Shown here: one piece after another, positions 32,620-42,607 of the stretch
How the letters are laid out: every line of letters begins with the position of its first letter
Position numbering within the stretch: position 1 is the first letter of the stretch
Assembly: GCF_021191705.1 (NCBI RefSeq)
Contig: NZ_JAIWPU010000005.1
Span: 62,001-126,000 of the forward strand
Reading direction: 5' to 3'
Source of the DNA: Proluteimonas flavola
GTDB taxonomy: Bacteria; Pseudomonadota; Gammaproteobacteria; Xanthomonadales; Xanthomonadaceae
DNA: 64,000 nucleotides
Notes under the pieces: model-generated
What the model was told of the DNA's origin: nothing
Databases searched by the model: none
The model's input: the letters and a program-made list of their open reading frames with translations, nothing else
Position numbers and translations under genes: made by a program

Positions 32620-33894
32620 ATGGCCGACTCTATCGCTGAACTGGTGAGGGCGGCGGGCGCCGCGGCAACCGCAGGCCGCTGGCAGGAGGCCGAGCGCACT
32701 TGGGGACAGGTCCGTACGCTCGATCCCGGCAACGTGCAGGCATTGTTTAGTCTTGGCGTGCATGCGTTTCAGCGCGGTGACGCGAAGGGCGCGCTGGAGC
32801 TGCTGCAGACGGCGCGTGCGCGAGCCCCCCGGGATCCGATGATTCCCATGACGGTGTCCCGGGTCTTTCGCGAACTTGCTCAGCCGGAGCAGGAGTGGGG
32901 GTCGATCGTCGACGCGCTTGAGATCGATGCGTACTTTCTTCCAGGCCTGCTCGGCAAGGCGGAGTTTCTCGAACGCCAGCGCCGGCCCCGGATAGCTGCC
33001 GCAGCATTTCGTGATGCGCTGAAGGTCGCGCCCGAGGAGCCACAATGGCCGTCCGCATTGCGGCGGCGACTCGAGCACGCCCGCGACGTGGTTTCCAACG
33101 ACACGGAAGACTTGGTTGCGTATCTTGCACATCAGGTGGCGGCGACACGCGCCACGGTCCATGCGGCCGTGGCCGACCGCTGGGATGAGGCGGTCTCGAT
33201 CCTCGCCGGCAGGAGCCGGCCCTACCATTCGGAGTGCCACCAACTGCACGTGCCGCGCCTGCCGGCGACCACGTTCTACGACGAGGCACTCTTCCCTTGG
33301 ATAGGTGAGCTCGAATCGCGCACCGACGCGATCAAGTCGGAACTGCAGGACATGCTTGCCAGCTGCGGCGATGCGTTCGTCCCTTATATCCAGTACGGCC
33401 CCGGCGATCCGGTCAACCAGTGGGACAAGCTCAACCATTCGCGCAATTGGAGTGGCTTTCATCTCTACGCGCATGGCAAGCCGGTAGACGAGCATCTGTC
33501 GCAATGTCCGCGCACCGCCGAGGCGTTGGCATTGGTCGACAGTGCGGAGATTTCCGGCCTGTGTCCGAACGCGATGTTCTCCGCTCTGGCGCCCGGCGCG
33601 CATATCCCGCCGCATACCGGAGAGACCAACGCCCGGCTGGTCGCCCACCTGCCACTAGTGGTGCCGGACAGGTGCCGCTATCGGGTCGGCTACGACTGGC
33701 GGGAATGGCGCGAAGGCAAATGCTGGGTATTCGATGACACCATCGAGCACGAGGCGCGTAATGACAGCGACCATGTGCGGGTGATCCTGATGTTCGATGT
33801 ATGGAATCCTCTGCTCAGTCTGGAGGAACGCGAAATGGCGACTGCGCTAGCGGGTGCCATGCGCGATTGGCGTACCGCTAGCGCCGAAGTGTGA
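32620..33894 (+). CDS. TPR protein with aspartyl/asparaginyl beta-hydroxylase domain
   Basis: The start MADSIAELVRAAG gives 424 residues; an ATG 13 codons earlier is an alternative. Residues about 5-160 are TPR helices (AGRWQEAERTWGQVRTLDPGN, ALFSLGVHAFQRGDAKGALEL). The C-terminal domain, about 220-424, matches the AspH/LpxO family closely: PHTGETNARLVAHLPL, WREGKCWVFDDTIEHEA and VRVILMFDVWNPLL. The iron and 2-oxoglutarate residues are expected at H332, H343, H377 and R387. Human AspH hydroxylates Asp/Asn in disulfide-bounded EGF domains and also carries TPRs. Here the gene heads a four-gene rightward run facing a TonB-dependent receptor. The substrate is unknown. Confidence 0.88.
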   Translation: MADSIAELVRAAGAAATAGRWQEAERTWGQVRTLDPGNVQALFSLGVHAFQRGDAKGALELLQTARARAPRDPMIPMTVSRVFRELAQPEQEWGSIVDALEIDAYFLPGLLGKAEFLERQRRPRIAAAAFRDALKVAPEEPQWPSALRRRLEHARDVVSNDTEDLVAYLAHQVAATRATVHAAVADRWDEAVSILAGRSRPYHSECHQLHVPRLPATTFYDEALFPWIGELESRTDAIKSELQDMLASCGDAFVPYIQYGPGDPVNQWDKLNHSRNWSGFHLYAHGKPVDEHLSQCPRTAEALALVDSAEISGLCPNAMFSALAPGAHIPPHTGETNARLVAHLPLVVPDRCRYRVGYDWREWREGKCWVFDDTIEHEARNDSDHVRVILMFDVWNPLLSLEEREMATALAGAMRDWRTASAEV

Positions 33895-33928
33895 GCTGCT
33901 GGGTTATCTTGGCTGTTCGGCCGACTGG

Positions 33929-34396
33929 ATGATGCTGATGCGCTTTTTCCTGACCTTGCTTCTACTGCTGCTCGCGTCGCCGGTGGCTGCGCAGCAGAAC
34001 CCCCATGGTTGTGCAAACGTCGGCGAAGCCGCAGCGCGACTGGCCTGCTACGACAGGGCGTTTCCACCCTCACCGGAAGTCCTCGAGGCTGCAGCCGAAA
34101 AGGGGCGTGCGGACTTCGGTCTGAACACGCCACGAGACCCGTTGCGCAACCCGGGACAGACGGGTGAACACGCCAACCCGGAGCGCATTGAAAGCCGGGT
34201 GATCAAGGTTGATTACGGCCACAGCGGGCGACGTGACTTCACGCTCGAGAATGGACAGGTCTGGATGCAGACCGAAGCGCGCAGCAGCGGTCATGTGCAG
34301 GTCGGCGATGTGGTGCAGGTGCGCACCGGAATCTTGGGTGGCTATCAGTTGATCACGTCGGCTGGCGTAGCCTTGCGCGTACGTCGCGCGCGTTGA
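33929..34396 (+). CDS. Small exported protein of unknown function
   Basis: This protein of about 155 residues has a clear signal peptide (MRFFLTLLLLLLASPVAAQQ); in-frame ATG codons at 33929, 33932 and 33938 are all possible starts and no strong ribosome-binding site decides. The mature protein opens CANVGEAAARLACYDRAFP, a Cys-x-CYDR pattern seen in many small periplasmic proteins of proteobacteria. Its second half has beta-strand character (RDFTLENGQVWMQTE, GDVVQVRTGILGGYQL). It lies between two oxygenase genes and ends seven bases before the second one, so it is probably co-transcribed. No function can be assigned. Confidence 0.75.
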   Translation: MMLMRFFLTLLLLLLASPVAAQQNPHGCANVGEAAARLACYDRAFPPSPEVLEAAAEKGRADFGLNTPRDPLRNPGQTGEHANPERIESRVIKVDYGHSGRRDFTLENGQVWMQTEARSSGHVQVGDVVQVRTGILGGYQLITSAGVALRVRRAR

Positions 34397-34403
34397 GGGG
34401 CAG

Positions 34404-36101
34404 GTGGCTGCGCTTTCTCCTCAGCCGCTGAATCTGGCGCAGGCGGAGCGCTTCAAACAGGCTCTGAATCTGTTGCAATCCGGGCAACATGCGCAGGCAT
34501 TGTCCATTGCCGAAACCTTGGCCAAGCAGTCGCCCCAGGCGGCAGATGCATGGCAGCTGCTGGGCATGTGTCTGGCGGACAGCGGACGTCCGGTGCAATC
34601 CGATGCGGCGTTCGAACATGCAATGGTCCTGCTGCCCGGCAATGCCATGGTGTCCCGCAACTACGGCATGTGCCTTGCACGGCGCGGCAAGACATTGCGG
34701 GAGCAGGGCCAGTTTGAAGCGGCGGAGCCTGTGTTGCGCAAGGCGCTTGAATTGTCTTCGGAACAGACATCCGCATGGGTGGATCTGGGCGCGGTGCTGC
34801 GTTTTCTGGGGCGCATCGACGAAGCGCTGGCTGCGTTTGAGCGAGCGGAGAAAATGCTGGTTCAACGCGGCGCCAGCACGATAGAAGTGCAGGATGCCAT
34901 CAACGGTGTATTGGCTGATGCTGGTCGCCCAGCGGAAGCGCTGGCATGCGCACGCCGGCTCGTGGCTCGGCATCCGGATCATGTGCCCGCTCACGAAACG
35001 TTGAGCAATCTGCTGTGGGAACACGGGCCGGAGCATGCACCAAGCGAAGACCCGCTGGGTATGTTCCGTACCGCAGCGCGGGCGCAGCCAGGAAACCGCG
35101 CGTTGCAATTGGCGCTTGTGCGAATGTTACTCGCCGCCAAGCATGCGGAAGAGGCTCTTGCGTTGCTTCATCCGCTGCGCAAGCGTGAGCCCGGCAACGC
35201 GTTGCTGGACTGGTTCGCTGCAGACGCACTAGACGCGCTTCAGCAGCGTGAGCAGGCCGCACTACTTTATGAAGCAGCATCACGTGGAGGGCTGGCAGAG
35301 CTGCCGGAGTTTCTCAATGCGCGCGCGCGGCATGCGTTCCGTACGCAGAGATTTGACCTGGCCGCAAGTTGCGCGGCAAGTGTGGTCAAACTCGATCCAG
35401 GCAACCAGGAAGGTTGGTGCCATCAGGGGACGGCATGGCGGCTGACCGGTGATGAGCGGGAACACTGGTTGTGCGACTACGAAGCGCTGGTGGGCTATGT
35501 AGAAGTCGCGCCGCCACCAGGCTACCAAGATGTCTTCTCGTTCCTTCAGGCACTGGAAGCCACACTGGAAGTCATGCATAGCGCCAAGCGGGAACCTGTG
35601 AATCAAAGCGTGCGTGGCGGCACGCAGACTTCGGGTCAGCTGTTTGGACGTGAGGATGCAGTCATTCTTGCGACAGAGTGCGCATTGCGAACAGCTGTCG
35701 AGAACTGGTTGGCCACGTTATCCGTCAGCGCGACCCATCCATTCCTGTCGCGGAACCAGCGCAGCGTGCACTTCGTCGGATCATGGTCCGTGCGGCTCAA
35801 GGCAGCGGGCCGTCATTCCAATCATCTTCATCCGAAGGGTTGGGCAAGTTCCGCGTTCTACGTCGCGCTCCCCGGCAGTGTGCTTGAGCCGGAATCCGCA
35901 TCTCACGCCGGATGGCTTCAGCTTGGACAGCCGTTGGAAGACCTGGGGCTCGACCTGCCACCGCATCGACTCATACGACCGAAGCCGGGTCATCTCGCGC
36001 TGTTTCCGTCTTACATGTGGCACGGCACCGTCCCATTCCATACGCATGATTCACGATTGACAGTCGCCTTTGACATGCAGCCGAAAATAAAGAGCGCCTG
36101 A
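34404..36101 (+). CDS. TPR protein with 2OG-Fe(II) oxygenase domain (2OG-FeII_Oxy_5 type)
   Basis: This 565-residue protein starts at a GTG preceded by TGAGGGG. Residues about 10-340 are TPR-type helical repeats (LLQSGQHAQALSIAETLAKQ, AADAWQLLGMCLADSGRPVQ and so on). Residues about 395-565 form a putative 2-oxoglutarate and iron-dependent oxygenase of the PF13759 kind: NHLHPKGWASSAFYVALP (candidate ligands H474/H476), PKPGHLALFPSYMWHG (H540) and RLTVAFD with the 2OG arginine at R551. Enzymes of this group are frequently encoded beside TonB-dependent receptors. With the AspH-like gene 0.5 kb upstream, it makes a two-hydroxylase cassette. The target is unknown. Confidence 0.85.
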   Translation: MAALSPQPLNLAQAERFKQALNLLQSGQHAQALSIAETLAKQSPQAADAWQLLGMCLADSGRPVQSDAAFEHAMVLLPGNAMVSRNYGMCLARRGKTLREQGQFEAAEPVLRKALELSSEQTSAWVDLGAVLRFLGRIDEALAAFERAEKMLVQRGASTIEVQDAINGVLADAGRPAEALACARRLVARHPDHVPAHETLSNLLWEHGPEHAPSEDPLGMFRTAARAQPGNRALQLALVRMLLAAKHAEEALALLHPLRKREPGNALLDWFAADALDALQQREQAALLYEAASRGGLAELPEFLNARARHAFRTQRFDLAASCAASVVKLDPGNQEGWCHQGTAWRLTGDEREHWLCDYEALVGYVEVAPPPGYQDVFSFLQALEATLEVMHSAKREPVNQSVRGGTQTSGQLFGREDAVILATECALRTAVENWLATLSVSATHPFLSRNQRSVHFVGSWSVRLKAAGRHSNHLHPKGWASSAFYVALPGSVLEPESASHAGWLQLGQPLEDLGLDLPPHRLIRPKPGHLALFPSYMWHGTVPFHTHDSRLTVAFDMQPKIKSA

Positions 36102-36267
36102 TCTGGGCTGCGCTTTTCTGCCGTCCTTGCCGCAATGGATAATGCCGTGTAATCCTCTGCGCAGGATGCGCCTGTCTGCTGCGCGCGCCTTCGATTTCAC
36201 GAGTGCGCGAGATATGATGTCCTATGGGTCTTTATGCAGGTTCCCCAGCTCTTTCGAGGCATACGCT

Positions 36268-36615
36268 ATGCACATCGATTCTGATGGTTCGATCCCTTTG
36301 TCCAAGTATTCCCTACCCAGTGCCTCATGGCAGCGCCGCATTCGCCACCTGTCGCTTGCTGCCCTGCTCACCGGGCTGCTGTCCGTCGGGCATACAACGG
36401 CCCAAGAGGCTGAACAGCCCGCCGCCGCGCAGGCCGTCGCGCCAAACAATCCTGGTAGAAATGGCAAGGTATGCCGTTCTGAGGACGTCACCGGCAGTCG
36501 GATGCGCAAGCGGGTTTGTTACACGCCAGAACAATGGGACGCCCGCCAGCGGGCAGCGCGTGAGGCGGTGCGCAACTTGGACAACAGGCCAGTAGGCAAG
36601 ATCGGCGAAGGGTGA
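36268..36615 (+). CDS. Small exported two-cysteine protein with VTGSR motif
   Basis: The start MHIDSDGSIP, with GAGG nine bases upstream, gives 115 residues. A long n-region is followed by a hydrophobic stretch (LSLAALLTGLLSVGHTTA) and a probable cleavage site near residue 46. The mature peptide is about 70 residues: a low-complexity linker, then CRSEDVTGSRMRKRVC with cysteines at 69 and 84 and VTGSR at 74-78, then a charged helix (TPEQWDARQRAAREAVRNL). The C-x-x-x-D/E-VTGSR-C-T-EQW pattern is, as I recall, common in small proteins of sphingomonads and caulobacters with no known role. It could be a hydroxylase substrate. A terminator follows. Confidence 0.75.
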   Translation: MHIDSDGSIPLSKYSLPSASWQRRIRHLSLAALLTGLLSVGHTTAQEAEQPAAAQAVAPNNPGRNGKVCRSEDVTGSRMRKRVCYTPEQWDARQRAAREAVRNLDNRPVGKIGEG

Positions 36616-36689
36616 TTTCCCGGCAGCTGGGGCAGGTCTCCAGCCGTCAACCATCGCTGTGTGCGACAAGGCGGTAGGCGGATATGCAG

Positions 36690-36726
36690 AAAGGCGGCGG
36701 GCCGAAACCCGCCGCCTTTCTGTTTG
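36690..36726 (+). terminator. Intrinsic terminator between the small exported gene and the convergent receptor gene
   Basis: AAAGGCGGCGGG and CCCGCCGCCTTT form a perfect 12-base-pair stem with a six-base loop, followed by CTGTTTG. The A-run on the left side lets it act in both directions, serving the receptor gene that ends at 36743 as well. Confidence 0.88.
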
Positions 36727-36742
36727 TTGCGTCCTGAGTCGA

Positions 36743-39661
36743 TCAGAACTTCAGCGCAATGCTCCCGAAGATGTAACGACCGACTTGGTCGTAGCCACCG
36801 AGGGCGTTGGCATTGGCCGATAGACCACTGTCACCCGAGAACGGCGGTTCCTTGTCCAACACATTGTTAACGCCAAGGCTCAACGTGGCAGCGCCGAAGC
36901 TCACGCTGCCGTTCAGGTCGAGGTAGTTGTACGAGCCTACCCCATTGTCGAGCCAGATCACGCGATCATCATCGGTGAGTGGGCTTCCATCCACGTCCTT
37001 GTAATCCATGCCGTCGATATAGCGCCAGCGCAAGCCCAGCGCGTAACGGTCCCATGCATAGCGCACCGAGGCAATGCTGCGGATCTCCGGCGTCTGGCAG
37101 AGGTAGGTTTCGTTGACCAAGCCCGTGCAGTCGTACCCGGTGCTCGGCTGCGACGAAAGTGTCTGGGTGTAGTCATCGAGAACGTAGTTGGCTGCCAGGC
37201 TGGTGCTCAGGCGGCCCGGGCCGAGGTTGAAGGAATAGTTCGCCGCGAAGTCGAGACCGGAGCGCTTGTAGATGCCGATGTTGCCGGGCAGATTGTTGAT
37301 GTGTCCGGTCAGGGGGTCGGAAGACAGGCCCACCCACAGGTCGTACTCGCCCGAGCGTGCATCACGGTTGATTCGGTCGCAGTACAGATTCTGCTCCATG
37401 CAGAGGATCTGGATCGTGTTGTACCCGATGCCGCCGATCGCGCCTTCAATCTCGACCCTGTACCAGTCGATCGACAGGTTCAGATTGTCGATCGGCTCAA
37501 TCGCAAAGCCGAGGGTATAGGTATCAGCCTCTTCGGGCTCTAGGCTGGGGTTGCCGCCCGTCATGTTGTAATACTGGTTGGCTGGGTTGCTGGGCACGTT
37601 GCCATACGCAGCCAACGGAACGCCTGCGCGCGCGCACTGTTCCGCGCTGTAGCTGGGGTTTGCGCCGGCACAGAGGTCGGTACCACCACTGTTTAGGGCG
37701 ATGCGCTGGGTGTAGTACAGATTATTCAGGCCGGGAGCGCGGACGGCGCGGTTGTAGCCGGCGCGCACCAGCAGCCTGTTGTCCCAGAACATGCTGCTCA
37801 GGCCGGCCTTGTAGGTATTGTAGTTGCCCGAGGTCTCGTCATCCGAGTATCGGAAGCCGAGCGAGGCATCCAAGCGGTTGAACGCACCACCACCCACATA
37901 GATCGGCAGCGCAGCTTCGAAGAAGAAGTCGTTCACCGTGTTGGAGGCGTTGACGGGGAGGCTGGCTGCACCGGCACCGGCAAAGTTGCCTGCCGCGGAA
38001 TCGCTGTCGTATTCGGTTTCGAAGGAATAGTCGCGACGCTCCATGCCGATGGCCAAGCCGATTTCTTCGCCGTCTGCGCTGGGGAAGCCCCAGCCGAGGA
38101 AGCCGTTGGCTTCGGCGGAGAACGCACGATAGCTGGTCTTGTAGACGCTGAAGCTGGTGCCGGCCATCGCCGCTGCCGCGTCCGCGTCGATCTGGTCTGT
38201 CCAAATGTCGTACGGCAGGCAGCCTTGGAAGGTGCCATACGTGGGGTCATTACAGCCGAGGGACGCAGCCGCGATGCGGGAGATCAAGAAGTCGTTCTTG
38301 CCGACTTCGACGGTCTTGGTCTTGCCGGAGACCAGAGACGCATCGTAGGTCCACGACGAGTCGAAAAAGGCGCCCCGGACACCTGCGGTGATGCGGTGGG
38401 TGCTGTCGTCGGAGCTGCTGATGCGCGGTCCCCCCTCGACGTTGCGCTTCCACATCGTAATGCGGGCCATGTCGGTGGTGACGCCGGCGTCGGTACACAG
38501 GGTGCCGATGAGCGGGTTGGCGCAATTTACATTGATCGGCACGCCGAACGCGCCGGATTCTGCGATCTGGACATCGGAATTGCGCTCCAGAAACAGCGCC
38601 TCGATATACGGCTCGAAGTACTCGTTGATCTCGTAGCTGCCCATGAAGCCAGCAGTGATGCGCTTGTCAGGACGCTGGTAGAAGTTGATAGGCGCGTAGT
38701 TGTAGACGTAGGTGCCGTTCTCGTAGCCGCTGCCATTCCAGACGTAATTGGCATTCGTGCCTTGCGGCCACGGGATGACGCCACCAGCGCCGTCGTTGAG
38801 GGTGGGATCCCACCGGTTGACCGTGAAGCGGCCTGGGTTGGCCGTGCCAGAGCCACCGCATTGCGGTGCGTCATACCACACCGAACAGTAGGAGTAGTCG
38901 CGTTGTCCATGATAAAGAGCGTCGTTCTCACGCCAAGTCAGCCAGCCCACGGCGTGGCCCCTGTTGTCGGCGAAACTCCCACCGATCACGAGATCGGCGT
39001 TGCGGCTGATGCCGTCGAAGCCAGAGTTACCGCTCGGGGCCTGATAGCCCGCCTCTTCGTTGAGGCCTTGCCAGTACCCGTTGTCGTTGTCGTGCTGGTA
39101 AGCGGAATAACCGAAGTTGAGGTGGACGCCCTCGAACTTGTCATCGAGCACGAAATTGACCACGCCGGCCACGGCGTCCGCGCCGTAAACCGCTGAGGCG
39201 CCGCCGGAGAGAATGTCGACGCGCCTGATGAGCGCTGCTGGGACGATGGATGGATCGGTGATCTCGTTGCGACTGGCGGGCAGGCGGCGACCGTTGACGA
39301 GTGTCAACGTCCGCTGCGGCCCAAGGCCACGCATGGAGACCGTCGCATGACCGTACGAGCCGTTGTTCTCGAAATTGTCGAAGCTAAGATCGACCTGTGG
39401 GTACTGGTTGACGAGATCCTCGACCGTCGTGGCACCGTACTGTGTGAACTCCTCTGCGCTGATCTCCGTGACGGGGCTGGAGGCGGTGAACGTCTGGCTC
39501 TTGATGCGTGAGCCGGTGACCGTGATCGTGTCGAGTTCGGTGGCGCTGGTGGAGGCTTGCGTGTCTTGGGCAAGCGCAACGCCAGTGCCGGCGACGCTGG
39601 TCACGCCCGCAATGAGTGCGAACGTGATCGCATCTCGCAGCTTGTTAGTCTTCAAAATCAT
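36743..39661 (-). CDS. Large TonB-dependent receptor of the hydroxylase island
   Basis: This 972-residue precursor has a signal peptide ending near GVALAQ (residue 32). The N-terminal DTITVTGSRI (44-53) combines a TonB-box-like segment and VTGSR, and the plug follows (EEFTQYGATTVEDLVNQYP, VSMRGLGPQRTLTLVNGRRL, VDILSGGASAVYGADAVAG). A long barrel ends in the C-terminal Phe of FGSIALKF. It belongs to the large DTITVTGSRI receptor group abundant in xanthomonads and alteromonads, thought to import peptides, glycans or iron chelates. The ribosome-binding site is GGAGAG. It faces the two-hydroxylase run across a bidirectional terminator. Base composition is lower in GC than in flanking housekeeping genes. 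Confidence 0.92.
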   Translation of the reverse strand: MILKTNKLRDAITFALIAGVTSVAGTGVALAQDTQASTSATELDTITVTGSRIKSQTFTASSPVTEISAEEFTQYGATTVEDLVNQYPQVDLSFDNFENNGSYGHATVSMRGLGPQRTLTLVNGRRLPASRNEITDPSIVPAALIRRVDILSGGASAVYGADAVAGVVNFVLDDKFEGVHLNFGYSAYQHDNDNGYWQGLNEEAGYQAPSGNSGFDGISRNADLVIGGSFADNRGHAVGWLTWRENDALYHGQRDYSYCSVWYDAPQCGGSGTANPGRFTVNRWDPTLNDGAGGVIPWPQGTNANYVWNGSGYENGTYVYNYAPINFYQRPDKRITAGFMGSYEINEYFEPYIEALFLERNSDVQIAESGAFGVPINVNCANPLIGTLCTDAGVTTDMARITMWKRNVEGGPRISSSDDSTHRITAGVRGAFFDSSWTYDASLVSGKTKTVEVGKNDFLISRIAAASLGCNDPTYGTFQGCLPYDIWTDQIDADAAAAMAGTSFSVYKTSYRAFSAEANGFLGWGFPSADGEEIGLAIGMERRDYSFETEYDSDSAAGNFAGAGAASLPVNASNTVNDFFFEAALPIYVGGGAFNRLDASLGFRYSDDETSGNYNTYKAGLSSMFWDNRLLVRAGYNRAVRAPGLNNLYYTQRIALNSGGTDLCAGANPSYSAEQCARAGVPLAAYGNVPSNPANQYYNMTGGNPSLEPEEADTYTLGFAIEPIDNLNLSIDWYRVEIEGAIGGIGYNTIQILCMEQNLYCDRINRDARSGEYDLWVGLSSDPLTGHINNLPGNIGIYKRSGLDFAANYSFNLGPGRLSTSLAANYVLDDYTQTLSSQPSTGYDCTGLVNETYLCQTPEIRSIASVRYAWDRYALGLRWRYIDGMDYKDVDGSPLTDDDRVIWLDNGVGSYNYLDLNGSVSFGAATLSLGVNNVLDKEPPFSGDSGLSANANALGGYDQVGRYIFGSIALKF

Positions 39662-39929: not shown

Positions 39930-40781
39930 TCAGAGATCTTGCTGATACCGGATATACGGCACCGCACCCTCGTCGTCCGCGTTCTCGGTCATCTTCGAGA
40001 ACGGGTTCTTGCCGCGGGTGATGACGTTGTCGGCGCCAACCGTGAGCTGGCCGCTCCACGGGGTGCGCCAGCTGACGCCGAGGCCGACGCCTTCCCATTT
40101 CGGGAGGCCGGGGGTGTCGACGACCTGGCCGACGATGTTGGCACTGAAACGGCCGATGCCACCGCCGATGCTGAGGCTGCGGCTGGTCCAGTGGTCGCTG
40201 AGCGTGGCGGGCGCGGCCGATGTCGGAATCAGCGTGGCCTTGGCCAGGGTGCCGGCGAGTGAGACGTAGGCGTCGTCGCCGATGTCCTTCTTGGCGAAGA
40301 CGGTGAGGTCGTGGAGATCGACCTGGCCAGCGGAGCCGACCCGCGAGGGGCTGAGAAAGCCGGGCAGGGTGTCGCGGCCTTCCCCGAGGGTCAGGCCGAC
40401 GCCGCCGCCGGGGCGGCTCATGCTCGCGGTGGCGCTGGCACGGCGGGCGCCAGGGGTGTTGTCGCCGACCGAGGCCAACTGGCAGTTGCGCGCCAGGCTG
40501 CTGACCGCGCCGTTGAAGCTGCTGCCGGGGCTGCACAGCAAAGCCAGGGAGCTGCCGGATTCGAGGCCGAATGCGGTATCGAACTGGCTTTCGCCGAAGC
40601 GCCAGCGGCGGCTCGACTGGTTGGCGGTCGCGGGCTCGAGGACCAGGAAGGCCTCGACATTGCCGGACGTGTCGAGCACGGGCAGCACGGTCTGGTTGCG
40701 TTTTTCCTGCGCGGCCGCGCCCGAGGCCGCCGCGAGGGCGAGACCGAGGGCAAGGACGAGGCGTGTGACAGGCAATCGCAT
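39930..40781 (-). CDS. Exported protein of unknown function, possible outer-membrane barrel
   Basis: This 283-residue precursor has a signal peptide (LVLALGLALAAASGAAA, cleavage before QEKRNQ). The mature protein shows a Ser/Gly-rich middle (SLALLCSPGSSFNGAVSSLA, with Cys residues 20-odd apart) and alternating strands toward the C-terminus (VGLGVSWRTPWSGQLTVGAD, VPYIRYQQDL), which would suit a small barrel or autotransporter-like fold. I do not recognise the family. It lies 268 bases upstream of the receptor gene on the same strand, separated by an AT-rich region. It may therefore be expressed separately. A palindrome in its own leader is noted at 40826. Confidence 0.65.
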   Translation of the reverse strand: MRLPVTRLVLALGLALAAASGAAAQEKRNQTVLPVLDTSGNVEAFLVLEPATANQSSRRWRFGESQFDTAFGLESGSSLALLCSPGSSFNGAVSSLARNCQLASVGDNTPGARRASATASMSRPGGGVGLTLGEGRDTLPGFLSPSRVGSAGQVDLHDLTVFAKKDIGDDAYVSLAGTLAKATLIPTSAAPATLSDHWTSRSLSIGGGIGRFSANIVGQVVDTPGLPKWEGVGLGVSWRTPWSGQLTVGADNVITRGKNPFSKMTENADDEGAVPYIRYQQDL

Positions 40782-40886: not shown

Positions 40887-41789
40887 TTACTGCAACCGCT
40901 CCGACACTTCCACGTCGACTTCGGGCGTTTCGAGCAGTTGATCGATCTCTTCGGCACTGAATCCGTAGGACTGTCCACAGAACTCGCAGATCACCCTGGC
41001 CTCCCCATCGACGATCGCGGCGCGGGCCTCGTCGGCGCCAAGCGACACCAGCATCTCTTCGACGCGACCCCGGGAGCAGGAGCACCCGAATGCCAGCGGT
41101 CGTTCCCCGAGCAACTGCGGTGCGTCTTCCGGGAACAGGCGCGACAGCAGCGTCCCGGTGGACCATCGAAGCAATTCGGCTGTCGACAGGGTGTCAAACA
41201 GGACGCTGACGCGATTCCAGCCGTCGTCATCCCCTTCGTCGCCCGGCAGCTTCTGCAGCATGAGGCCGGCGGCCTCGTCCCCGTCGACCGCCAGCAGCAC
41301 CCGCGTGGGCAGTTGCTCGGACTGGCGGAAGTAGTCCTCGAACGCGCCCGACAGCGATTCGGCCGTCAGCGCGACCAGGCCCTGATAGCGGTTGGGCTCG
41401 CGATGCGGCGAGGGGTTCTCGATCGTGATCGCGAGCAGCGCGTGGTCGCCGAGCGCGCGCAGGTCGCGCGAGACGTCCGCGCCGTCGCCGTCGAACCGGG
41501 CGATGCCGCGGATCGTGCCGGCAGCCGTGCATTCGGCGAACAGCGTGCGCAGTGGGCCCGGGGTGCGCAGTTGCACCGACAGGCGGCCGTCGACCTTGGC
41601 GTGACCGGTGAACAAGGCGGACGCCACGCAGGCTTCGCCCAGCATCTCTTCGATCGTCGGCGGGTAGGAGCCATTCGCGCGCACGGCCTGCCAGGCCTCG
41701 CGCAGATGGACGCGCACGCCGCGCACGCCGGCGGTCTGCAGGAGGAAGCGTGACAGGCGGTCGCTGTCGGGCTGGGCGATGTCGGTCAT
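40887..41789 (-). CDS. hslO: Redox-regulated chaperone Hsp33
   Basis: The start MTDIAQPDSD gives 300 residues. The N-terminal domain carries SRFLLQTAGVRGVRVHL, the GEACVASALFTGHAKVDGRL segment and IARFDG. The C-terminal redox switch is intact, with C236-x-C238 and C268-x-x-C271 arranged as in the zinc centre of Hsp33. Oxidation releases the zinc, forms two disulfides and activates the holdase, protecting proteins under oxidative stress. No hslR-type partner is adjacent. The gene is divergent from mtgA with a 59-base shared region. Confidence 0.96.
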   Translation of the reverse strand: MTDIAQPDSDRLSRFLLQTAGVRGVRVHLREAWQAVRANGSYPPTIEEMLGEACVASALFTGHAKVDGRLSVQLRTPGPLRTLFAECTAAGTIRGIARFDGDGADVSRDLRALGDHALLAITIENPSPHREPNRYQGLVALTAESLSGAFEDYFRQSEQLPTRVLLAVDGDEAAGLMLQKLPGDEGDDDGWNRVSVLFDTLSTAELLRWSTGTLLSRLFPEDAPQLLGERPLAFGCSCSRGRVEEMLVSLGADEARAAIVDGEARVICEFCGQSYGFSAEEIDQLLETPEVDVEVSERLQ

Positions 41790-41848
41790 GTCGGCTCGCA
41801 AGGGATTTCGATTGGCGGCATTAGGAAGCGACCGATAGAGTGGCCGCC

Positions 41849-42607
41849 ATGGAACAACCGGCTCTCCGACATGGGGACGGCGCTGCCGTCCCGCAAGCAC
41901 GCACCTCGTTCACCCGCCGCTGGCTGCGCCGGCTGCTGTGGCTGGGCGTGCTCCTCGCTGTGCTGCCGGTGTTGCAGGTGCTGATCCTGCGCTTCATCGA
42001 TCCGCCGTTTTCGACCTTCATGGCGATCCGGCAGGTCGAGGCTTGGACGGGCGGCGAGCGCGATTTCAACCTGTATTACCAGTGGCGCGATCTCGACCGC
42101 ATCGCGTCGTCGCTGCCGGTCTCGGTGATCGCCGCCGAGGACCAGAATTTCGCCCAGCACCGCGGGTTCGATCTGGACGCGATCGAGAAGGCGCGCGCGC
42201 ACAACGCGAGTGGCGGTCGCATGCGCGGCGCCAGCACGATCAGCCAGCAGACCGCGAAGAACCTGTACCTGTGGGGCGGGCGCAGCTGGGTGCGCAAAGG
42301 GCTGGAGGCCTACTACACGCTGCTGATCGAGACGCTGTGGCCGAAGACGCGGATCCTCGAGGTCTACGTCAACGTGGCCGAGTTCGGCGATGGCATCTAC
42401 GGCGCGCAGGCCGCGGCGAAGCGGCACTTCGGCAAGGACGCAGCGCAACTGAGCGCTGGCGAAAGCGCGCGGCTGGCGGCGGTACTGCCGAGTCCGCGAC
42501 GTTACAGCGCCTCGCGTCCCGGCCCCTACGTGCAGCGACGCGCGCAATGGATCCAGCGCAACGCGCGCCAGATCGGCGGCGAGTCGTATCTGGAGGCGCT
42601 CGAGTGA
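41849..42607 (+). CDS. mtgA: Monofunctional biosynthetic peptidoglycan transglycosylase
   Basis: This 252-residue GT51 glycosyltransferase has one N-terminal membrane helix ([19 protein letters not shown]). The catalytic motifs are intact: [15 protein letters not shown] with the catalytic glutamate at 97, [29 protein letters not shown] and [20 protein letters not shown]. There is no transpeptidase domain. It polymerises lipid II into glycan strands. A GTG three codons upstream is an alternative start. Its TGA overlaps the next gene's GTG start, so the two are translationally coupled. Confidence 0.96.

What the first reader, a model, noticed from the sequence alone, without database searches (positions are those of the whole stretch)
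32620..39661. Two TPR-hydroxylases, two small exported proteins and a TonB-dependent receptor form a possible modification/uptake system
Seen: an AspH-type hydroxylase and a 2OG-Fe(II) oxygenase, each with N-terminal TPRs, alternate with two small exported proteins and face a 972-residue TonB-dependent receptor across one terminator; the stretch is less GC-rich than its flanks. Known: AspH hydroxylates Asp/Asn in disulfide-bounded domains; PF13759-type oxygenases often lie beside such receptors. Inference: the hydroxylases modify the small exported peptide or the receptor, tuning uptake or signalling.
Basis: partly seen in the sequence, partly recalled or inferred. Interest (0 to 1): 0.82.

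Follow-up and report, generated by a model that had tools for sequence, protein, structure and literature searches.

The report
Outer-membrane receptor with dedicated tailoring enzymes
Two enzymes that look able to add oxygen to proteins sit beside one outer-membrane uptake receptor in a gene neighbourhood shared by many bacteria, and in related versions extra enzymes that look able to add sulfate to tyrosine come and go together with single tyrosines of that receptor, which suggests these bacteria chemically edit their uptake receptors.

Summary
In detail: a TPR-AspH hydroxylase, an exported small protein, a TPR-PF13759 oxygenase, a second exported small protein and a convergent 972-residue TonB-dependent receptor (TBDR). 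In this family it fills a chromosomal slot between hsp33 and pckA: of 86 slots read, 83 hold a receptor, 75 a receptor plus a modifying enzyme (TPR-sulfotransferase, AspH, PF13759, methyltransferase), none an enzyme without a receptor. PF13759-TPR genes also abut TBDR genes in Halieaceae, Woeseiaceae and some Alphaproteobacteria.

What is modified? Two TPR-sulfotransferase subtypes of these loci are each paired with one receptor tyrosine. Over 69 receptors, Tyr at window position 402 occurs in 31 of 31 with subtype B and 1 of 38 without; Tyr at 280 in 24 of 25 with subtype A and 1 of 44 without. The window has neither sulfotransferase and neither tyrosine.

Best reading: a receptor-tailoring cassette, here reduced to two hydroxylases. 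Receptor sulfation is strongly inferred; receptor hydroxylation rests on linkage, since no AspH or PF13759 site was found.

The parts
32620..33894 (+). TPR + aspartyl/asparaginyl beta-hydroxylase-like enzyme (PF05118), 424 aa
   Evidence: 2OG-oxygenase residues H332, R339, H377, R387 invariant in 11 homologues and aligned to human AspH 5apa, E 1.7e-23; roles of these residues recalled
33929..34396 (+). small exported protein 1 (sml1): signal-like N terminus, 'RLACYD' helix region, C-terminal six-strand sheet
   Evidence: model pLDDT 83, no PDB fold match at E <= 0.001
34404..36101 (+). TPR + 2OG-Fe(II) oxygenase (PF13759), 565 aa
   Evidence: H474, H476, H540 and R551 invariant in 12 homologues; catalytic part matches uncharacterised 3bvc, E 5e-5
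36268..36615 (+). small exported protein 2 (sml2): C-x14-C with a TGSR motif; tandem duplicate in a relative (L060)
36686..36723 (.). hairpin between the convergent gene ends (probable shared terminator)
   Evidence: not listed by the consensus scan
36743..39661 (-). TonB-dependent receptor, 972 aa, proposed substrate
   Evidence: model pLDDT 55.7 only, best PDB fold match PfeA
38456..38458 (-). receptor codon 402 (Thr here): the position that is Tyr in relatives with sulfotransferase subtype B
38822..38824 (-). receptor codon 280 (Thr here): the position that is Tyr in relatives with sulfotransferase subtype A
39930..40781 (-). conserved exported-looking protein (OM283) that borders the slot; no Pfam family
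   Evidence: found in 146 of 149 family genomes
40887..41900 (-). Hsp33, outer border of the slot
   Evidence: PF01430
31333..31950 (+). TetR-type regulator, other border of the slot (pckA, usually between it and the cassette, is missing in this genome)
   Evidence: PF00440

Best explanation
The cluster is a receptor-tailoring cassette. Enzymes without export signals, most of them carrying TPR repeats that probably grip an extended polypeptide, modify the TonB-dependent receptor encoded beside them in the cytoplasm before it is exported and folds into the outer membrane. Relatives carry different enzyme sets: TPR-sulfotransferases of a tyrosine-sulfotransferase-like family (subtype B for a tyrosine three residues before the [KR]RNVEGGPR motif, subtype A for a tyrosine after the conserved CGGS segment), AspH, PF13759 oxygenase, methyltransferases. 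The window has the two-hydroxylase version; its receptor has lost both tyrosines. Shown: conserved linkage and the enzyme-residue co-variation for the two sulfotransferases. Inferred: that the tyrosines are sulfated, that they lie in extracellular loops, and, by extension only, that AspH and the PF13759 oxygenase hydroxylate the same receptor. The effect is most likely on ligand choice or on escape from phages and bacteriocins that use the receptor; this is a guess.
For: Slot: hsp33-OM283-[cassette]-pckA-TetR; of 86 slots 83 hold a receptor, 75 receptor plus enzyme, 8 receptor only, 3 empty, 0 enzyme only. 35 of 59 family AspH matches lie within 20 kb of the slot. Of 12 strong PF13759-TPR genes 10, of 13 strong AspH genes 10, and of 11 strong sml1 genes 11 lie beside this receptor type. 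Across the 80 best relatives 64 have a receptor in the locus, 54 within 2 kb, 35 within 500 bp. Tyr402 with subtype B: 15 of 15 against 0 of 20 in the discovery set, first of 2104 column-residue pairs (p 3e-10, next 9e-7); 24 of 24 against 0 of 31 after adding 20 distant receptors, first of 2733 (4e-16, next 4e-10); both traits change 8 times on the receptor tree, Pagel test p 3e-7. Tyr280 with subtype A: 18 of 19 against 1 of 36, first of 2733 (2e-12), Pagel p 8e-6. Receptor-first set: B 7 of 7 against 1 of 7; A 6 of 6 against 0 of 7. Subtype B matches solved protein-tyrosine sulfotransferases (8w5z E 5e-13). One slot (G132) holds a relative of Rickettsia PKMT1 (5dnk, E 6e-70), an enzyme family that methylates outer-membrane proteins (PMC11784438, abstract and passages).
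Against: No mass-spectrometry or biochemical evidence. The same scan finds no site for AspH (best 1.6e-4, or 1.4e-5 for its absence), none chemically sensible for the methyltransferase (Thr825, 4e-8) and has no power for PF13759 (only 4 receptors lack it). In the more diverse receptors of the other slots (75 receptors) no clean tyrosine appears (best 11 of 30 against 0 of 45). L306 has Tyr402 with no sulfotransferase in sight; L303 and two receptors of L312 have it too but were not fully readable; L232 and L255 are exceptions at 280. 16 of the 80 loci show no receptor, 9 of them with flanks over 7 kb on both sides (L214, L231, L238, L250, L252, L259, L269, L271, L276), and in G038 and G074 the oxygenase sits elsewhere. 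Fisher values ignore shared ancestry.
Confidence: 0.6

Rival explanations
1. The enzymes tailor a small secreted or ribosomally made peptide (small protein 1 or 2, or an unseen precursor), and the receptor takes it up or senses it; the receptor tyrosines would then read the sulfated peptide rather than be sulfated.
For: sml1 is tied to this receptor type in Lysobacterales (11 of 11 strong matches in 149 family genomes). Sulfotransferase and aspartyl beta-hydroxylase clusters with consecutive numbers to a lasso-peptide B2 protein and PqqD are listed for Pontixanthobacter (PMC10040529, passages).
Against: Small proteins missing in G047 and in the G090, G116, G138 loci, and mostly missing in distant loci. 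Ligand reading does not predict a clean one-enzyme-one-tyrosine match, twice. Short ORFs under 50 residues were not searched systematically.
Confidence: 0.2
2. The enzymes make or alter a siderophore-like small molecule that the receptor imports (PF05118 also holds lipid and amino-acid hydroxylases).
For: The AspH domain also matches OlsC and LpxO models weakly, far below their cut-offs; the receptor model is nearest by fold to siderophore receptors.
Against: The receptor-sulfotransferase residue pairing; tyrosine-sulfotransferase homology; TPR arms on AspH, PF13759 and sulfotransferases; no biosynthetic genes such as NRPS were noted among the slot contents, although unlabelled ORFs were not all annotated.
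Confidence: 0.1
3. Co-location is a side effect of a shared slot and shared regulation; the hydroxylases act on unrelated targets and the tyrosine match reflects ancestry.
For: Many receptors of the family carry no enzyme; the hydroxylases show no matching site; AspH and PF13759 homologues occur without a receptor in some loci.
Against: Eight coincident changes on the receptor tree, repeated in distant orders where the slot does not exist, and enzyme never without receptor in 86 slots.
Confidence: 0.1

Closest known systems
Outer-membrane protein lysine methyltransferases (Rickettsia PKMT1/2 on OmpB; KmtA on AtaA)
   Same: A dedicated enzyme modifies surface outer-membrane proteins at many sites; a PKMT1-like enzyme occurs in one slot of this family. 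Source: PMC11784438, abstract and passages.
   Different: Targets there are autotransporter-type adhesins, chemistry is lysine methylation, one enzyme; here TonB-dependent receptors with up to five enzyme types, and single sites for the sulfotransferases.
RaxST / RaxX of Xanthomonas (tyrosine sulfation)
   Same: Bacterial tyrosine sulfation of an exported polypeptide (PMC4216712 and PMC6637879, search listing only).
   Different: Substrate is a small secreted peptide with its own exporter; no TPR receptor-linked enzyme; no hydroxylases in the described cluster (recalled).
Human AspH (TPR + hydroxylase)
   Same: Same catalytic family and TPR-hydroxylase layout; iron and 2OG ligands conserved.
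   Different: Human enzyme works in the ER on disulfide-bounded EGF-like domains (recalled; PMC9293771 listing); here no export signal and no such domain in the neighbours.
Protein-tyrosine sulfotransferases TPST1/2
   Same: Sequence match of the subtype-B catalytic domain (8w5z, 3ap1, 5wri).
   Different: TPR arm, no Golgi anchor, bacterial receptor as proposed substrate; not present in the window itself.

Membership tests
Aspartyl/asparaginyl beta-hydroxylase (PF05118) | PF05118 domain above the curated cut-off | tested here: met
   147.3 bits against 22.6
Aspartyl/asparaginyl beta-hydroxylase (PF05118) | iron-binding His pair and 2OG-binding Arg | tested here: met
   H332, R339, H377, R387 invariant in 11 homologues and aligned to human AspH; functional roles recalled
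Aspartyl/asparaginyl beta-hydroxylase (PF05118) | hydroxylates Asp/Asn of a protein | not testable with these tools
   no receptor Asp/Asn column follows AspH presence (best p 0.0035 for Asp/Asn)
PF13759 2OG-Fe(II) oxygenase | domain above the curated cut-off | tested here: met
   74.7 bits against 27
PF13759 2OG-Fe(II) oxygenase | known substrate | not testable with these tools
   3 papers hold the family name; listing only, none about such a locus by title
TonB-dependent receptor | Plug and barrel domains | tested here: met
   PF07715 77.5 bits, PF00593 93.9 bits; fold nearest PfeA/FepA
Cell-surface signalling receptor (FecA type) | N-terminal signalling (STN) domain and neighbouring anti-sigma/sigma pair | tested here: not met
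   no STN domain in the Pfam scan; bordering genes are TetR, acyl-CoA dehydrogenase, OM283, Hsp33
Outer-membrane protein modification system (PKMT type) | cytoplasmic enzyme acting on an outer-membrane protein | tested here: inconclusive
   linkage and residue co-variation only
Outer-membrane protein modification system (PKMT type) | PKMT methyltransferase present | tested here: not met
   no methyltransferase in the window cassette; one PKMT-like enzyme among 86 slots
RiPP / lasso-peptide tailoring cluster | precursor peptide and leader-processing genes | tested here: inconclusive
   none recognised in the window cluster; ORFs under 80 aa and under 50 aa (scripts) not examined

The most novel reading that the evidence does not exclude
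TonB-dependent receptors of many Gamma- and some Alphaproteobacteria are post-translationally edited by swappable cassettes of cytoplasmic enzymes, one enzyme per site: tyrosine sulfation at two loop positions, plus hydroxylation and methylation elsewhere. Cassette turnover in a fixed chromosomal slot would diversify receptor surfaces without changing the receptor gene much, for ligand choice or escape from phages and bacteriocins.
Probability: 0.45. Interest if true: 0.92.

Novelty: new variant of a known kind. Interest (0 to 1): 0.8.

Why it matters
If true, it would be a dedicated route by which bacteria modify nutrient receptors in the outer membrane, with tyrosine sulfation of an integral outer-membrane protein and a site code readable from genomes. 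It gives an orphan enzyme family (TPR-PF13759) and bacterial TPR-AspH proteins a concrete protein substrate to test, and gives a direct mass-spectrometry prediction (+80 Da on one named tyrosine). Modified loops would change how receptors meet ligands, phages and bacteriocins. My ten literature searches of the open-licence library showed no description of such a system in their listings; subscription papers and preprints are not held there.

Tried and rejected
Small exported proteins as the core substrate: set back because they are missing from many enzyme-bearing loci. sml1 fold search: no PDB match at E <= 0.001. Receptor site for AspH, methyltransferase and PF13759: scans by residue, residue class and gaps gave nothing clean; a 369-371 segment (ESGAF/ESGTF) leans with AspH but has several exceptions. 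Repeat of the tyrosine test on 75 receptors of the other slots: no clean site; there AspH presence even ranks a tyrosine first (10 of 16 against 0 of 59), which I take as clade effect. Signalling-receptor reading: no STN domain. Promoters: 1 match, below the shuffle mean of 1.7.

How the test was made: nine feature/residue classes were scanned first and Tyr402 came out of that; subtype labels were then set by BLAST. For the distant loci the prediction was written down before the sulfotransferase tree was seen, but the tyrosine context and presence of some sulfotransferase were already on view. L223 was added to subtype B afterwards as sister to that clade (without it 8 of 8). L265 was left out and later typed as subtype B from a partial gene; it counts. 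L303, L310, L311 and both receptors of L312 were not counted (sequence on one side only); L313 and L314 lack the motif. Slot counts use my own HMM thresholds and allow AspH up to 2.5 kb beyond OM283. PEPCK positions of G120 and G135 were left out when pasting (110 of 112 used).
Full report
What is in the window. The five genes are as described: a TPR-AspH enzyme, small exported protein 1 (sml1), a TPR-PF13759 oxygenase and small exported protein 2 (sml2) on the plus strand, and a 972-residue TonB-dependent receptor on the minus strand ending against them. A strong hairpin separates the two gene ends. GC is lower than in the flanks. The genome has a single PF05118 and a single PF13759 match, both here, and 52 TBDR plug matches. 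The host is probably a Luteimonas (Lysobacteraceae): the same-genus genome G028 has a contig of the same length (275,493) as the named Luteimonas sp. J29 record L225; this is an inference.

The neighbourhood is conserved in the family. In 149 family genomes the receptor type (E <= 1e-150) occurs in 15, and 12 of these have cassette enzymes beside it; G077, G104 and the partial receptor of G107 do not. Strong PF13759-TPR genes: 12, of which 10 lie beside this receptor; strong AspH genes: 13, of which 10; strong sml1 genes: 11, of which 11. G038 and G074 carry the oxygenase without a receptor, and G090, G116 and G138 carry AspH beside a different receptor of about 31% identity.

The neighbourhood is a slot. 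Hsp33 and an unknown conserved protein (OM283) border one side; pckA, a TetR regulator and an acyl-CoA dehydrogenase the other. OM283 was found in 146 of 149 genomes, PEPCK in 112. Of 89 genomes with both on one contig, 86 have them within 25 kb on opposite strands, with 0.15 to 18.7 kb between. I read all 86: 83 hold a receptor (TBDR or Oar-like type), 75 a receptor plus at least one of sulfotransferase, AspH, PF13759, methyltransferase or PKMT; 8 hold a receptor only, 3 are empty, none holds an enzyme without a receptor. 35 of the 59 AspH matches lie within 20 kb of the slot. So the window cassette is one of several alternative contents.

Beyond the family. The 80 best relatives of the TPR-PF13759 protein (551 found, list cut) include Halieaceae, Woeseiaceae, Kordiimonas, Hyphomonadaceae and a Sphingomonadales MAG. 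64 have a receptor in the locus, 54 within 2 kb, 35 within 500 bp, 19 directly downstream of it on the same strand; among the 41 most distant, 32 have a receptor and 26 within 500 bp. For comparison the window genome has one TBDR per about 81 kb. 16 loci show none, some cut short by contig ends, 9 with more than 7 kb on both sides. Several Halieaceae and Woeseiaceae loci have the order receptor, oxygenase, sulfotransferase, then a convergent AspH. sml1-like hits occur in 4 and sml2-like hits in 2 of those 41, so the small proteins are not the core.

Which molecule is modified. I asked whether any residue of the receptor follows the presence of an enzyme. In 35 receptors of the window's type, sulfotransferase subtype B (15 loci) goes with Tyr at window position 402 in 15 of 15 against 0 of 20, the best of 2104 column-residue pairs by more than three orders of magnitude. 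Tyr at 280 follows subtype A (11 of 12 against 0 of 23; tied second in its list). I wrote down the prediction that distant loci would obey the same rule by subtype, then built the sulfotransferase tree. It held: subtype B 9 of 9 against 0 of 11, and subtype A 7 of 7 against 1 of 13, in 21 distant receptors less L265. Together: B 24 of 24 against 0 of 31, first of 2733 pairs; A 18 of 19 against 1 of 36, first of 2733. On the receptor tree both B and Tyr402 change eight times; the Pagel test for dependent change gives p 3e-7 (B) and 8e-6 (A). A receptor-first set, not chosen through the oxygenase, gave B 7 of 7 against 1 of 7 and A 6 of 6 against 0 of 7. A second alignment of all counted receptors gave B 31 of 31 against 1 of 38 and A 24 of 25 against 1 of 44. 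Exceptions: L306 (Tyr402, no sulfotransferase seen), L232 (tyrosine two residues later), L255 (Tyr280, no subtype A seen, locus ends at a contig end); L303 and two receptors of L312 have Tyr402 but could not be read on both sides.

Why this points to sulfation of the receptor. Subtype B's catalytic domain matches solved protein-tyrosine sulfotransferases, and both subtypes carry PF13469 with TPRs. In the receptor model (mean pLDDT only 55.7) positions 280 and 402 fall in the long connectors 247-331 and 363-418, which alternate with short turns, so they should face outwards; the fold search puts the model with PfeA and FepA. Both are inferences from a weak model. Ligand recognition by those tyrosines is the rival; two independent one-enzyme-one-tyrosine matches favour the tyrosines as acceptors.

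What the window's own enzymes do. The window receptor has Thr at both positions and the locus has no sulfotransferase, as the rule predicts. For AspH no receptor residue follows its presence convincingly, and only four receptors of this type lack the PF13759 enzyme, so there is no power. That AspH and the PF13759 oxygenase act on this receptor therefore rests on their place in the cassette, on intact active-site residues, on TPR arms shared with the sulfotransferases, and on the rule that enzymes never occupy the slot without a receptor. I put this lower than the sulfotransferase claim.

Tests that did not support the reading. In 75 receptors of the other slots, with mixed sulfotransferase types, no clean tyrosine emerged. 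The methyltransferase scan peaked at a threonine. Fisher values ignore kinship, and close relatives are counted separately.

Known relatives. Outer-membrane protein lysine methyltransferases are the nearest established kind: PKMT1/2 on OmpB and KmtA on AtaA (PMC11784438, abstract and passages), and one slot holds a PKMT1-like enzyme next to two TPR-sulfotransferases, AspH and a receptor. RaxST sulfates a small exported peptide (listing only). A Pontixanthobacter table lists sulfotransferase and aspartyl beta-hydroxylase clusters numbered next to lasso-peptide genes (PMC10040529, passages), the best precedent for the peptide rival. Searches for the combination in print found nothing that describes it (mostly listings, two papers checked by passages).

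Verdict. Observation confirmed; interpretation partly supported, with the receptor rather than the small peptides as the likely substrate; new variant of a known kind (dedicated modification of outer-membrane proteins), with a testable site code.

Noticed in passing
window 39930-40781 (-): OM283, an exported-looking protein with no Pfam family, is found in 146 of 149 family genomes beside Hsp33 and borders the slot; function unknown.
   Followed up: partly
window, whole genome G000: No PEPCK match in this genome, although pckA borders the slot in most relatives; several same-genus genomes lack it too.
   Followed up: no
L116, L152, L112, L125, L161, L159: Other slots hold Oar-like receptors (carboxypeptidase-regulatory domain plus TonB barrel) with TPR-sulfotransferases; 21 of 86 slots have this receptor type, one of them together with a TBDR.
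   Followed up: partly
L063:4722-5909: ISL3-family transposase inserted between receptor and sulfotransferase A in Luteimonas sp. J29 (G028).
   Followed up: no
L069, L070 (G038, G074): TPR-PF13759 oxygenase without receptor, beside genes for a large, oxidoreductase-looking protein (not annotated by a family search).
   Followed up: no
L138 (G067), L111, L154: Slot empty (about 150 bp); in G067 the cassette with receptor lies on another contig (L066), so the cassette can move.
   Followed up: no
L060:7299-8466: Two tandem copies of small protein 2 in a relative.
   Followed up: no
L305 (G559): The oxygenase gene appears only as two weak fragments beside AspH and the receptor; possibly decayed.
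   Followed up: no
L243: Record titled Klebsiella pneumoniae MAG carries a TBDR-oxygenase locus like those of marine Gammaproteobacteria; the label is probably wrong.
   Followed up: no
receptor 365-372 (window TBDR): Segment QIAESGAF/QIAPSGTF leans with AspH presence (Thr371 10 of 14 without AspH, 3 of 38 with) but with several exceptions.
   Followed up: partly
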